From positions 1-38,805 of the forward strand of contig CACYSI010000026.1 in the NCBI GenBank assembly GCA_902776975.1: a stretch of 38,805 nt of DNA, written 5' to 3'. Shown in pieces: positions 1-38,805 of the stretch. The translations under genes and the position numbers were made by a program. The notes under the pieces are model-generated. The model searched no databases and was not told where the DNA came from. It saw nothing but the letters and a program-made list of their open reading frames with translations. The DNA is from an uncultured Ruminococcus sp. GTDB taxonomy: Bacteria > Bacillota > Clostridia > Oscillospirales > Acutalibacteraceae. Every line of letters starts with the position of its first letter. The first letter of the stretch is position 1.

Positions 1-1
1 G

Positions 2-1093
2 TTATCATCCACTCCGATTCAGAGCGCCGATGAAGTTGTCAAGGTCGGCGATCGTGTAGAACTGCTTATTATGAAGACCAACGACGTTGAGGGTACCATA
101 ATGCTCTCAAAGCGCAGAGTAGACGCCCAGAAGGGTTTTGAGGAGCTTCAGAAGGCTTATGACGAGAAGCAGATCCTCACCGGTCTCGTGACCGAGGTCG
201 TATCCGGCGGCGTTATAGCTGTAACTAACGATATCCGCGTGTTCATCCCCGCTTCACAGGCTACCTTAGAGCGTGACGCTAACCTTGAGGATCTCAAGGG
301 TCAGGAGGTCAAGTTCCGTCTGATCGAGATGTCACAGCGCGGCAGAAGAAGAAAGATCATCGGCTCTATCAAGAGTGTTCTCCGTGAAGAGGCAGCCGCT
401 AAGCGCGCTGAGTTCTGGGAGAACTGCGAGGTTGGCAAGACTTATACAGGCGTAGTTCGTACACTGACATCCTACGGCGCTTTTGTAGATCTCGGCGGAG
501 TATCGGGCATGATCCACATCTCCGAGCTCTCATGGCTGCGCATCAAGCATCCCAGCGAGGTCGTCAACGTAGGCGATACCGTTGAGGTATATATCAAGGA
601 CATCAACCCCGAGACCAAGAAGATATCTCTGGGTTATAAGAAGACCGAGGACAATCCCTGGACTATTCTTGAGAGAGATTATCCTGTCGGCACCGTTGTC
701 AAGGCTAAGGTAGTCGGTCTGACCGCTTTCGGCGCTTTCGCCAACATCATCCCCGGCATCGACGGACTTATCCATATCTCTCAGATTTCCAACAAGCGTA
801 TCGAGAAGCCCGCAGACGAGCTTTCGGTAGGTGATGAGGTAGAGGCTAAGATCACAGGCATCGACTTCGATAAGAAGCGTGTCAGCCTGTCAATCCGCGC
901 TCTCCTGCCTGATTCAAGACCCGCTCCTGTTGCTGACGAAGCTCCCGCTGAGGATGAAGTCGTAGCTGTAGCTGAGCCTGACGCCGAACCCGTTATCCGC
1001 GAGCTTGAGGATGAGGTTCCCGCCGCTGAAGAAGCCGCTCCTGTTGAGGAAGCCGCTCCCGCTGCGGAAGAGACTCCTGCAGACGCAGAATAA
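2..1093 (+). CDS. rpsA: 30S ribosomal protein S1 / S1 RNA-binding domain protein (5' partial)
   Basis: The frame is open to the window edge, and residues encoded before the first ATG (position 71) complete an S1 domain, so the gene is 5'-truncated and 71 is not its start. One partial and three full S1 OB-fold repeats follow, centred near 200-360, 440-640 and 680-900; the last two carry the typical GAF and G-HIS cores. S1 domains bind mRNA and help load it on the 30S subunit. The tail (about 905-1090) is a low-complexity Ala/Glu/Pro stretch. In many Clostridia this protein is fused to the C-terminus of IspH; whether that holds here lies outside the window. A strong terminator follows directly. 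Confidence 0.9.
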
Positions 1094-23087: not shown

Positions 23088-23396
23088 ATGTTCGCAGTAA
23101 TCGAGACCGGCGGTAAGCAGTACAGAGTTGAGCAGGGCGATGTTATCTACATCGAGAAGCTCGACGCTGAGAACGGCGCTACCGTTGAGTTCAAGGTTGT
23201 CGCTGTTTCGGACGGCGACGGTATCAAGGCCGGCACACCTTATGTTGACGGCGCTAAGGTTTCAGCTGAGGTCATCAAGACCGATAAGGCTAAGAAGATC
23301 TATGTATCGACCTACAAGCCCAAGAAGGGCGAGAAGCGCAAGATGGGTCACCGTCAGCCTTACACAAAGGTTGAGATCAAGGCTATCAACGCCTGA
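23088..23396 (+). CDS. rplU: 50S ribosomal protein L21
   Basis: L21 binds 23S rRNA near domains I and II. The 102 residues begin MFAVIETGGKQYRVEQGD and end with the RNA-binding KKGEKRKMGHRQPYTKVEI. The start has AAAGGA about 9 nt upstream; the frame is open further up, but that part is promoter and leader. Its stop overlaps the prp start by 1 nt, the conserved rplU-prp-rpmA order. Confidence 0.97.
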   Translation: MFAVIETGGKQYRVEQGDVIYIEKLDAENGATVEFKVVAVSDGDGIKAGTPYVDGAKVSAEVIKTDKAKKIYVSTYKPKKGEKRKMGHRQPYTKVEIKAINA

Positions 23397-23713
23397 TGAT
23401 CACAGTCCGGTTTTTCGGTAAGTCTCCTATCTACGGCTTTCACATCACAGGTCACTCGGATATCAATCCCGATGGTCCCGAGATACTTTGCGCGGCGGTA
23501 TCGTCAGCGGCTTATATGGTCGCCAACACCGTGACGGAGATAATCGGACTCGAGCCTGAGCTGCGTGTCGATGACGGAGATATGTATTTGAAATTACAGA
23601 CTGAAAACGAAGCTCAAAGATGCCGTGATATTTTTGACGGCATGAGGCTTCATCTCAGCTCCATTGAGGAGCAGTACAAAGACTATATCAAACTCACATA
23701 TTCGGAGGTGTAA
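23396..23713 (+). CDS. prp: Ribosomal-processing cysteine protease Prp
   Basis: Prp removes the N-terminal extension of ribosomal protein L27 in Firmicutes and relatives. The 105 residues carry the catalytic pair H20 in TGHSD and C32 in [11 protein letters not shown], at the expected spacing. It sits between rplU and its substrate gene rpmA. The adjacent L27 precursor has a duplicated cleavage motif. Confidence 0.93.
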
Positions 23714-23717
23714 GGTA

Positions 23718-24023
23718 ATGCTTAAGATAAATCTGCAGTTGTTCGCTCATAAAAAGCAGTTGTTCGCTCATAAAAAGGGTATGGGTTCAACAAAGAACGG
23801 TCGTGACAGCGAGTCTAAGCGTCTCGGCGTTAAGCGCGCTGACGGTCAGTTCGTTTTAGCCGGCAACATTCTTGTTAAGCAGAGAGGTACTCACATTCAT
23901 CCCGGTAACAACGTAGGCCGCGGCTCTGATGATTCTCTCTTCGCTAAGGTTGACGGCGTTGTACGCTTTGAGCGTATGGGCAGGGACAGAAAGCGCGCCA
24001 GCGTTTATCCTGTTGAGCAGTAA
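23718..24023 (+). CDS. rpmA: 50S ribosomal protein L27 with duplicated N-terminal processing motif
   Basis: L27 reaches the peptidyl transferase centre with its N-terminus, which in Firmicutes is exposed only after Prp cuts the precursor between F and A of a motif like NLQFFA. This 101-residue protein begins [13 protein letters not shown], then repeats QLFAHKK before [11 protein letters not shown]. The repeat is an exact 21-bp tandem duplication (23736-23756 and 23757-23777). Cutting only at the first site would leave seven extra residues in the ribosome active centre; cutting at the second gives the usual mature end AHKKGMGS. The start at 23718 follows GGAGGTG about 7 nt upstream. Confidence 0.95.
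23736..23777 (+). repeat. Exact 21-bp tandem duplication in rpmA
   Basis: Two identical, adjacent, in-frame 21-nt units encode QLFAHKK twice. No mismatch is seen, so the event is recent, under strong purifying pressure, or an assembly artefact. Confidence 0.95.
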
Positions 24024-35940: not shown

Positions 35941-38118
35941 ATGAAAATGAAACGAGTATTAAGCGTACTGCTCGCAGCAATCATCGTTGTTTCGTGCTTC
36001 GCGGTTGCTTCGGTAGCCGTATCCGGCGCGAGCGCTGATGTCGCGGCGTCAGGCTCTGCGTACGACAGTATGCAGACAGCAATCTCAGCCGAAAACGGCT
36101 ACGGATTGTCTGAGACAGTAGACCAGGGTACTATTATCCAGGCATGGAACTGGTCGTTCAAAAACATCGAGGCAAATCTTGAGAAGCTCGCTTCTCAGGG
36201 CTTTACTACCATTCAGGTATCGCCTCCCAATGAGATCAAAAAGGCTACTAAGGGCGTTAAAGTGACTGCCGGCGATACTAACGGTTGGTGGATGTTCTAT
36301 CAGCCCGTAGGTTTCCAGCTCAACGAGAGCACCGATAACGCTCTGGGCACCAAGTCTGAGTTCGTATCTATGTGCCAAAAGGCTCATCAGCTCGGACTGA
36401 AGATCATCGTCGACGCGGTTATCAACCATGTCGGTACCAAGGACGGTACTCCCGACAGCGACAGCTCTGTTATGAATCACGTTAATGATAAAGTCAAGAC
36501 CTTTGAGCCTGTGCTCTACAATAACCAGCTGTTCCATTCTCCGTGGAAGAAGATGCAGTATATTGAGAGCAACGCTTCTCAGTATGATTCTACATACGAC
36601 CTTACCCGCAACTGCACCTCCGGTCTGCCCGATCTTAAGACTGAGGATCAGCGCGTTCAGGATATGATCTATGAGTATCTTGAAGAGCTTATCGAGTCCG
36701 GCGCCGACGGCTTCCGTTTCGACGCTGCTAAGCACATCGAGACTCCCGATGATATCAGCAGCCTGAGATCCGACTTCTGGACAGATACTCTGGTAAAGGT
36801 AAAGAACAAGTATTCCGACAGAGAGATCTACGCTTACGGCGAGATCCTTAACACTTGCGGTATTAACCGTCCCTTCAGCATGTATACCAAGCTGTTCGAT
36901 GTAACAGACTCCAGTTCTTATTGGAGCATCAAGGACGCTGTTGTCAAGGGCGGCTCAAACGGCAACGCTATTCCTTACTATCCCAACGCAAACTTCACAA
37001 GCAAGAACGTTGTTCAGTGGGATGAGTCTCACGATACTTACTGCGACGGCAACACCAGCGGCTTGACTTCTTTACAGCGCGGTAAGATCTGGGCTCTCGT
37101 AGCAGGTCGTAAGGACATCAGCTGCGTATACTTCGCTCGTCCCGATGACGGCACCAGCACCGGCGCGATGAACAACGTCACTCTCGGCGAAGCTAAGTCA
37201 ACATCGTGGGCAAACGCTACAACCAAGGCTGTCAACCAGTTCAACAACTACTTCATCGGTCAGGATGAGTACTGCTCAAGCTCAGGCGGCACAGCCTGGA
37301 TCGAGAGAGGTTCAACAGGCGCGATTATCGTAAACCTCGGCGGCACAACCTCCAAGAGCGTATCTCTTACAAACCACAAGCTTACAAACGGCACATACAA
37401 GGATGCTATCACAGGCAACACCTTTACTGTAAGCGGCGGCAAGATCTCCGGTTCTGTAGGCAGCACAGGCGTAGCGTGCATCTATGAGAACAATGCGACT
37501 CCCACAGAGAAGCCTACCGATCCTCCCGTAACCTATGTTCTCGGCGATATCGACGAGACAAACGAGGTAGACAATGTTGACGCTACCTATATCCTCCGCT
37601 ATGCTATCGGCGTAGTTAAGTCTATCACCGACAAGCAGGTATTAGAAGGCGACGTTGACGGAGATAAGGCTGTTACAGTTATCGACGCTACATACATCCA
37701 GCGTTATGCTGTTAAGATGTCAACACCTTACGCTATTGGTGAGACAAAGGTTGTTGAAGGCGGTCAGATCCCGACTCAGAAACCTACAACACAGACACCC
37801 ACTACACAGACTCCTACAACACAGGAGCCCACAACTTACAATCCTCCCACAACACATGAAGTCGGCGATACAGTCACACTGTACTTCTCCAACAACAAGG
37901 GTTGGGATGGCGTAAACGTATACATGTGGTCTGAAGGCGGCGAGTCCACCGCATGGCCCGGCGTTGCGGCTACATATGTAGTATACCAGTGTTATCTTCA
38001 ACGGCTCAGGCGGCCAGACAGAGGACGTAGACGTTGCTTCCGCCGCTGCTCAGGGCTGCGGTCTGTACTGCTTAGATACACAGAACGACCTCGGTCACTT
38101 CTTGGTAGGTTATTATGA
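35941..38118 (+). CDS. Secreted alpha-amylase (GH13, AmyE-like) with dockerin; frame broken in the first CBM
   Basis: An extracellular alpha-1,4-glucan hydrolase. Signal peptide at about 1-30; GH13 catalytic domain 60-490 resembling B. subtilis AmyE, with DAVINH (158-163), FRFDAAKH with nucleophile D261, YGEIL with acid/base E301 and ESHD with D365. A type I dockerin spans about 534-602 (GDIDETNEVDNVDATYI and GDVDGDKAVTVIDATYI repeats), so the enzyme likely docks to a cohesin scaffold as in amylosomes. A Thr/Pro-rich linker and a CBM26-like module follow. The module frame is lost after VAATYV at 37980; the codons from there to the stop at 38118 are out of frame and not native. Coding continues in two other frames (see the next entries). 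It is therefore damaged or misassembled 3' of the dockerin. Confidence 0.9.
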   Translation: MKMKRVLSVLLAAIIVVSCFAVASVAVSGASADVAASGSAYDSMQTAISAENGYGLSETVDQGTIIQAWNWSFKNIEANLEKLASQGFTTIQVSPPNEIKKATKGVKVTAGDTNGWWMFYQPVGFQLNESTDNALGTKSEFVSMCQKAHQLGLKIIVDAVINHVGTKDGTPDSDSSVMNHVNDKVKTFEPVLYNNQLFHSPWKKMQYIESNASQYDSTYDLTRNCTSGLPDLKTEDQRVQDMIYEYLEELIESGADGFRFDAAKHIETPDDISSLRSDFWTDTLVKVKNKYSDREIYAYGEILNTCGINRPFSMYTKLFDVTDSSSYWSIKDAVVKGGSNGNAIPYYPNANFTSKNVVQWDESHDTYCDGNTSGLTSLQRGKIWALVAGRKDISCVYFARPDDGTSTGAMNNVTLGEAKSTSWANATTKAVNQFNNYFIGQDEYCSSSGGTAWIERGSTGAIIVNLGGTTSKSVSLTNHKLTNGTYKDAITGNTFTVSGGKISGSVGSTGVACIYENNATPTEKPTDPPVTYVLGDIDETNEVDNVDATYILRYAIGVVKSITDKQVLEGDVDGDKAVTVIDATYIQRYAVKMSTPYAIGETKVVEGGQIPTQKPTTQTPTTQTPTTQEPTTYNPPTTHEVGDTVTLYFSNNKGWDGVNVYMWSEGGESTAWPGVAATYVVYQCYLQRLRRPDRGRRRCFRRCSGLRSVLLRYTERPRSLLGRLL

Positions 38119-38155
38119 ATATGTAGGTCCCACAGAGGGCGGCGACAAGCCCACG
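37834..38155 (+). repeat. Tandem CBM26 repeat, copy 1
   Basis: A unit of 322 bp: linker plus starch-binding module. Its first 147 bp match copy 2 with one mismatch, and the remainder matches less closely. Against copy 2 it lacks 13 nt at 37980. Confidence 0.85.
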
Positions 38156-38365
38156 ACTTACAATCCTCCCACAACACATGAAGTCGGCGATACAGTCACA
38201 CTTTACTTCTCCAACAACAAGGGTTGGGATGGCGTAAACGTATACATGTGGTCTGAAGGCGGCGAGTCCACCGCATGGCCCGGCGTTGCGGCTACATATG
38301 TATGGATACCAACCAGTATACCAGTGTTATTTTCAACGGCTCAGGCGGCCAGACAGAGGACGTAG
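37982..38365 (+). pseudogene. Amylase continuation in a second frame: end of CBM copy 1 and most of copy 2
   Basis: From 37982 the native amylase frame resumes (TSVIFNGSGGQTEDVDVAS, then LGHFLVGYYEYVGPTEGG and the next linker and CBM up to VAATYV at 38301), with no start codon of its own and a TAG immediately upstream. After 38301 this frame again becomes non-native, ending at 38365. It is the middle part of the broken amylase, not an independent gene. Confidence 0.7.
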
Positions 38366-38460
38366 ACGTTGCTTCCGCTGCTGCTCAGGGTTGCGGTCTG
38401 TATTGTCTTGATGACAAGAATGACCTCGGTCACTATCTCGTAGGTTATTATGAGTACACG
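38156..38460 (+). repeat. Tandem CBM26 repeat, copy 2
   Basis: Second unit of the duplicated starch-binding module; offset 322 bp from copy 1 before the indel and 335 bp after it. Confidence 0.8.
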
Positions 38461-38805
38461 GGCACAACAAGCGGAAACAACAATACCGAAGAAACTCAGG
38501 GTCAGGGAAATCAGGGCGACAATACAGGCGTATCCTTCCTGCTCACAGATAACTTCGGTTGGGGTACCGCTTATGTTTACGCATGGGACGACGCCGGTAA
38601 TAAGCTCAACGGCGAATGGCCCGGCTCAGCTCAGGCAGAGACTATCGTAAACGACTACGGCGAGACTCAGTTCAGATGCTATGTTCCCGACGGCGCTACC
38701 GGCGTTATCCTCAGCAACGGCAACGGCGCACAGACTGAGGACATCACCGACTTCGGTACCTATGACGGTTACTGGATGGACGGTTCCAAAAATGACCTCG
38801 GACAT
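38302..38805 (+). CDS. Amylase 3' part in a third frame: end of CBM copy 2 and a third, intact CBM (3' partial)
   Basis: The frame from MDTNQYTSVIFNGSGG at 38302 is open to the window end. It finishes copy 2, passes a Gly/Asn/Gln linker (SGNNNTEETQGQGNQGDN), and encodes a third, more divergent CBM26-like module (VSFLLTDNFGWGTAYVYAWDDAG...WPGSA...VILSNGNGAQTEDI) that is complete in its core. Comparison with this module shows that copies 1 and 2 each lack about 14 residues after WPGVAATYV. It is 3' partial. It would not be translated from the amylase start unless the sequence has errors. Confidence 0.7.
   Translation, partial: MDTNQYTSVIFNGSGGQTEDVDVASAAAQGCGLYCLDDKNDLGHYLVGYYEYTGTTSGNNNTEETQGQGNQGDNTGVSFLLTDNFGWGTAYVYAWDDAGNKLNGEWPGSAQAETIVNDYGETQFRCYVPDGATGVILSNGNGAQTEDITDFGTYDGYWMDGSKNDLGH

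What the first reader, a model, noticed from the sequence alone, without database searches (positions are those of the whole stretch)
23718..23790. Duplicated Prp cleavage motif in the L27 precursor
Seen: an exact 21-bp in-frame tandem duplication gives QLFAHKK twice before GMGSTKNG. Known: Prp must cut Firmicutes pre-L27 between F and A so that the mature N-terminus reaches the peptidyl transferase centre. Inferred: the precursor has two candidate sites, and only cutting at the second, or at both, gives a normal L27. This could slow maturation, give two ribosome populations, or be a neutral expansion tolerated because Prp trims the rest. Prp itself is intact and adjacent.
Basis: partly seen in the sequence, partly recalled or inferred. 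Interest (0 to 1): 0.75.

Follow-up and report, generated by a model that had tools for sequence, protein, structure and literature searches.

The report
Duplicated protease site in ribosomal L27
One bacterium carries a small, recent in-frame duplication that doubles the spot where its ribosomal protein L27 must be trimmed; it is present in the assembled sequence and unique among the relatives examined, most likely a tolerated accident, but it is a handy natural test of what the trimming enzyme needs.

Summary
An exact 21-bp tandem duplication (23735-23777) gives QLFAHKK twice near the N-terminus of the only L27 gene found in this genome, next to an intact, single Prp gene. It is the only exact tandem duplication of period 12-60 in the window and not chance. 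It is private to this genome in the sets searched: of 142 other same-genus genomes with an L27 match, 138 read at DNA level have one unit and 4 break off too early to tell; at phylum level 1 of 398 sampled genomes (this one) matched a duplication-sized query; two genome-contig scans gave nothing. The copies are identical, so the event looks recent. Site 1 keeps the upstream P8-P1 sequence but has QLF instead of GMG at P5'-P7'. Site 2 keeps [10 protein letters not shown] but has K, K, H where relatives mostly have I/L, N, I/V at P4-P6. Only a cut at site 2 gives normal L27, so if the allele is real and Prp does the job, site 2 is cut without the usual P4-P6. Most likely a tolerated slippage duplication, probably cut twice. 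Not testable here: reads, other strains of the species, the mature N-terminus.

The parts
23396..23713 (+). prp (ysxB), Prp cysteine protease that matures L27; 105 aa, motif GHS...C...S intact
   Evidence: Pfam PF04327 E 4.6e-22; only match in the genome; aligns to solved Prp chains 4peo/7kld, 2idl, 7jvs
23704..23708 (+). GGAGG ribosome-binding site of rpmA, overlapping the end of prp
   Evidence: read; the same GGAGG is seen in many relatives
23718..24023 (+). rpmA, precursor of ribosomal protein L27, 101 aa
   Evidence: Pfam PF01016 E 1.6e-36; only match in the genome; translation
23736..23756 (+). first 21-bp unit, QLFAHKK; candidate cut F9|A10 between bases 23744 and 23745
23757..23777 (+). 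second 21-bp unit, QLFAHKK; candidate cut F16|A17 between bases 23765 and 23766, the cut that gives the normal AHKKGMG N-terminus
23766..24020 (+). mature L27 ([12 protein letters not shown]...), identical to two same-genus relatives apart from the duplication
   Evidence: G004 and G535, 100% identity over 2-101 with a 7-residue gap

Best explanation
A recent replication-slippage type duplication of 21 bp in rpmA doubled the core of the Prp site in the L27 precursor of one lineage. It stays in frame, and the whole insertion lies upstream of the bond that defines mature L27, so Prp can still release a normal L27. Most likely Prp cuts first at site 1, which has the complete upstream recognition sequence, and then at site 2 using [10 protein letters not shown]; a single direct cut at site 2 would give the same product. 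The duplication is then close to neutral. Shown: the duplication, its uniqueness in the sets searched, the single intact genes. Inferred: order of cuts, neutrality, and that the living cell carries the assembled allele.
For: Exact in-frame duplication; the rest of the protein is identical to G004 and G535. One L27 and one Prp match in a genome estimated 97.75% complete, so the cell appears to depend on this precursor. The two copies are identical at every base: one recent event. 138 same-genus genomes have one unit. Site 2 keeps P1 F, P2 L, P3 Q and P1'-P5' AHKKG, invariant in the 139 records profiled (P3 in the 137 that reach it). A review (PMC9405229; sections 11, 13 and 25 whole, 3 and 16 first part) gives P1 F and P3 Q as key contacts and reports that uncleavable L27 in S. 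aureus is non-viable.
Against: Site 2 has K at P4; none of 137 records has it (I 111, L 25, F 1), nor any of the 22 long L27s in the review's Table 2 (all L or I, my count). The review describes contacts of P4 L, P5 N and P6 L (P numbers for its L4 and L6 are mine), so site 2 may be cut poorly and the duplication may carry a cost. No mature N-terminus, read data or second strain was available.
Confidence: 0.58

Rival explanations
1. Assembly, read or strain-mixture error: the species normally has one unit and the assembled allele is wrong or rare.
For: The genome is a 65-contig draft with 1.91% estimated contamination. No relative has the duplication. No reads could be inspected. The start of rpmA is also where several related drafts break: contigs of G462, G483, G496, G497 and G513 end or begin within the first 30 codons, G496 and G497 at the same base, so this conserved stretch may be hard to assemble in mixtures.
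Against: The longest repeat inside the array is 22 bp, so for words of 23 bases or more the assembly path through the array alone is unbranched, and the junction CATAAAAAGCAGTTG should have come from reads. The array (43 bp) is shorter than ordinary short reads. Contig-end overlaps of 49 and 85 bp do not reveal one assembly word length, so this is not decisive.
Confidence: 0.18
2. Prp cuts only at site 1 and the ribosome, or later trimming by peptidases, tolerates seven extra residues (AHKKQLF) on L27.
For: Site 1 has the whole P8-P4' sequence usual in relatives; site 2 lacks the usual P4-P6.
Against: The review states that the unprocessed extension blocks tRNA binding and that an uncleavable precursor is non-viable in S. 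aureus. AHKKG at the mature N-terminus is invariant in 139 records (the one exception met, G456, reads SNKKG).
Confidence: 0.1
3. The duplication slows or stages L27 maturation (two cuts per molecule), giving a real fitness or regulatory effect.
For: Two cuts are plausible from the sequence, and the review proposes that Prp stays bound to L27 as a chaperone.
Against: Only one genome has it, with identical copies, so there is no sign that it was kept by selection. Prp shows no change at the catalytic residues.
Confidence: 0.1
4. Internal initiation at a TTG inside the second unit bypasses the problem (product MFAHKKGMG).
For: TTG is the Leu15 codon of the second unit.
Against: The clear GGAGG lies upstream of the normal ATG and none precedes this TTG; the product would still need a cut after F.
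Confidence: 0.03

Closest known systems
Long-form pre-L27 with one Prp site (MLKLNLQFF|ASKK type; PMC9405229 Table 2)
   Same: prp directly upstream of L27, same QLF|AHKK core, same mature protein
   Different: Core unit present twice in tandem; the extension is 16 residues counted to the second bond, against 9 in one-unit relatives that begin MLKI. The review says extensions as long as 15 residues have been observed; Table 2 shows longer ones without a repeated unit
Streptococcal pre-L27 with a longer extension ([16 protein letters not shown] in S. mutans, Table 2 of PMC9405229)
   Same: Longer extension before a QLF|AHKK site
   Different: There the extra residues lie upstream of NLQLF, so P4 and P5 stay L and N; here the insertion breaks P4-P6 at the second site
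80-alpha phage scaffold and capsid proteins cut by Prp (Table 1 of PMC9405229)
   Same: Prp substrates with N-terminal sequences longer than that of L27
   Different: One site each with a complete NLQ(F/H)F context

Membership tests
Ribosomal protein bL27 (long form, Prp-processed) | L27 domain over the curated cut-off | tested here: met
   PF01016, 124.6 bits against cut-off 20.5
Ribosomal protein bL27 (long form, Prp-processed) | N-terminal extension ending in a site of the usual form (N/D)(L/I)Q(L/F)F|A | tested here: met
   Site 1 reads [10 protein letters not shown]
Ribosomal protein bL27 (long form, Prp-processed) | The complete site lies directly before the mature N-terminus | tested here: not met
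   The bond before AHKKGMG is preceded by HKKQLF, without the usual P4-P6; this is the variant feature
Ribosomal protein bL27 (long form, Prp-processed) | Cleavage by Prp in the cell | not testable with these tools
   Needs N-terminal sequencing or mass spectrometry
Prp protease (C108, Peptidase_Prp) | Family profile and adjacency to L27 | tested here: met
   PF04327, 78.5 bits against cut-off 27; gene directly upstream of rpmA
Prp protease (C108, Peptidase_Prp) | Catalytic His and Cys and the helix Ser (H22, C34, S38 of SaPrp) | tested here: met
   H20, C32, S36 align with them; invariant in the 6 aligned Prps
Prp protease (C108, Peptidase_Prp) | Asp31 of SaPrp (loop support; D31A inactive according to the review) | tested here: not met
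   Glu29 here; also Glu in the close one-unit relatives L003-L007, so not linked to the duplication

The most novel reading that the evidence does not exclude
The lineage has evolved a two-step L27 precursor: Prp first cuts the complete site 1, leaving a seven-residue stub that keeps L27 inactive (or Prp-bound) until a slower second cut at the incomplete site 2, so that late 50S assembly is staged by two cuts of one protease.
Probability: 0.06. Interest if true: 0.65.

Novelty: new variant of a known kind. Interest (0 to 1): 0.32.

Why it matters
If the allele is real, it is a natural experiment on Prp specificity. The cell appears to have one L27 gene, and normal L27 needs a cut at a bond without the P4-P6 residues that the review describes in contact with the enzyme. 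That would mean QLF plus the downstream AHKKGMG is enough in the cell, or that the first cut helps the second. This is a clean question for a peptide assay and bears on how much of the substrate Prp really reads. If it is a neutral accident, it matters little.

Tried and rejected
Chance repeat: rejected. A second L27 or second Prp gene that would make this copy dispensable: none found. A duplication shared by a clade: rejected for the sets searched. A Prp changed to suit the duplication: the window's Prp is 72% identical to L003 and keeps the catalytic residues; the Asp-to-Glu change is shared with one-unit relatives. A private Lys codon that marks both copies: I first thought AAA AAG was nearly private; in the larger set 18 of 137 records have it, so it dates nothing by itself. 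A DNA hairpin that could explain the slippage: nothing unusual (z -0.67). Contig-end overlaps to learn the assembler's word length: 49 and 85 bp, no single value. Print search for a duplicated Prp site in L27 in the held PMC library: one targeted search (10 of 50 papers listed) and three wider ones (20 of 148, 20 of 123, 20 of 27), listings only; no title or abstract start shown reports one. Of a second paper, PMC5744158, I saw passages. The two founding S. aureus Prp papers are not held, so I know them only through the review. Odds: after the second read of my calls I moved the best explanation from 0.60 to 0.58 and the artefact rival from 0.15 to 0.18, because several related drafts break at this place.

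Full report
What is there. The window is contig C26 (1-38805) of a draft genome of 2,140,305 bases in 65 contigs, estimated 97.75% complete and 1.91% contaminated. At 23088-24023 it has L21, prp and L27 in the usual order (the L21 name rests on the sequence and on the known operon order, not on a family search). The L27 gene starts at 23718 and reads [28 protein letters not shown].... The repeat is exact, 21 bp, two units, with one further shared base, 23735-23777. It is the only exact tandem duplication of period 12-60 in the window; ten Markov surrogates gave none.

Who else has it: genus. 143 of 161 genomes, this one included, matched the 101-residue query; 18 had no match. Of the other 142, I read DNA at the start of L27 for all (records of the window's own genome set aside). 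138 have one unit: 136 by the motif script, G515 and G456, whose site is divergent (KIKIHLF|SNKKGMC). Two, G496 and G497, stop at the contig end inside the first QLFAHKK met, so a further unit upstream cannot be excluded. Two, G513 and G526, do not reach it.

Who else has it: wider. In a sample of the order, 365 of 394 genomes matched; only the best rows are listed, and by eye none of those but this genome aligns without a gap through both units. With a 34-residue query at E 1e-9, 1 of 398 sampled genomes of the phylum matched, this one. In a scoring control 7-residue duplications in other long-L27 backgrounds scored 44.8-55.1 bits and single-unit forms 27.6-37.8, so such duplications should have been seen; a 9-residue duplication (38.4 bits) would not stand out. 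Two scans of genome contigs, the exact 42 bases and a relaxed variable-gap pattern (it finds the window), gave 0 hits. The relaxed pattern requires TTC for the first Phe; a single-site version with TTC rings in 27 of the 32 loci then held, three of them the window's own. The collection may leave out genomes very near the window's own.

When it arose. The two units are identical at every base, so the event looks recent. Both end AAA AAG; the relatives with the identical mature protein, G004 and G535 (L003, L033), have AAA AAA, but AAA AAG is found in 18 of 137 records of the larger set, so it is not private.

The two sites are not alike. In one search, 139 records (138 genomes of the genus; G493 twice; G515 and G456 not among them; two records cut at P2) show P1 F and P2 L in all 139, P3 Q in 137 of 137, P4 I 111, L 25, F 1, P5 N 135, K 1, D 1, P6 I 125, V 10, L 2, and P1'-P5' AHKKG in all 139, P6' M 135 or Q 4, P7' G in all. 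In the window, site 1 has the usual P8-P4' but Q L F at P5'-P7'. Site 2 has P3-P1 and P1'-P7' intact but K, K, H at P4, P5, P6. K at P5 occurs once in the profile (L071) and in G456, so P5 looks flexible. K at P4 occurs in none of the 137 records, in G456 or G515, or in the 22 long L27s of the review's Table 2 (my count). G456 has H at P3 and S, N at P1', P2'; if that sequence is right, even these positions are not absolute. The review (PMC9405229; sections 11, 13 and 25 whole, 3 and 16 first part) describes P1 F, P3 Q, P4 L, P5 N and P6 L in contact with the enzyme or holding the peptide's shape in the S. aureus complex 7KLD, and reports that an uncleavable precursor is lethal in S. aureus.

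Most likely working. Prp is single, intact in its catalytic residues and adjacent. Site 1 is the better upstream match, so I expect it to be cut first; the remaining [14 protein letters not shown] must then be cut again to give normal L27. A direct cut at site 2 gives the same end product. Because everything added lies upstream of the second bond, the duplication can be close to neutral. That this is so in the cell is inference. The alternatives (an assembly or strain artefact, site-1-only cutting with a tolerated stub, staged maturation, internal initiation) are listed with their evidence.

Artefact question. A one-unit gene does not contain the junction CATAAAAAGCAGTTG, and repeats inside the array are at most 22 bp, so an assembler using words of 23 or more should not make two units without reads that hold the junction. 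This is an argument, not a read check. Against it stands that contigs of five related drafts (G462, G483, G496, G497, G513) end or begin within the first 30 codons of rpmA, so the place may be awkward to assemble. No reads and no second strain of the species were available, and contig-end overlaps of 49 and 85 bp did not settle the word length.

Verdict. Present in the assembled sequence, unique in the sets searched, apparently recent, and most likely a tolerated accident. Its value is as a natural test of which parts of the substrate Prp needs. Interest 0.32.

Noticed in passing
L030/L076 (G057), L153 (G036), L154 (G044), L155 (G040), L156 (G131), L157 (G045): Six same-order genomes of different genera have a short L27 that begins MAHKKG, with no extension, and 0 of 6 have a Prp match. 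Suggests that the extension and Prp were lost together, in five families.
   Followed up: partly
window 23480-23482 (Prp residue 29); L003-L007: Glu replaces the Asp that corresponds to Asp31 of S. aureus Prp, where D31A is reported inactive; shared by close relatives with one-unit L27.
   Followed up: partly
L084 (genome G456): A same-genus L27 with a divergent site, KIKIHLFSNKKGMCST, and no ATG at the usual place; real change or poor sequence.
   Followed up: no
L117, L133, L111, L146, L072 (G496, G497, G483, G513, G462): Contigs of five draft genomes of the genus end or begin within the first 30 codons of rpmA, two of them at the same base.
   Followed up: no
window 37777-37835 and 37840-38483: A 15-bp repeat array next to a 335-bp imperfect tandem pair (87% match) near the contig end; the last 280 bases have 78-97% similar copies on contigs C37, C10 and C7, as in a repetitive gene family.
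   Followed up: no
window 1-49 and 38721-38805: Exact overlaps with the last 49 bases of contig C48 (35,094 bases) and the first 85 bases of C45, possible neighbours of this contig.
   Followed up: partly
L043 and L044 (genome G493): Two L27 genes on different contigs of one draft genome, with different silent changes; may be a mixed bin.
   Followed up: no
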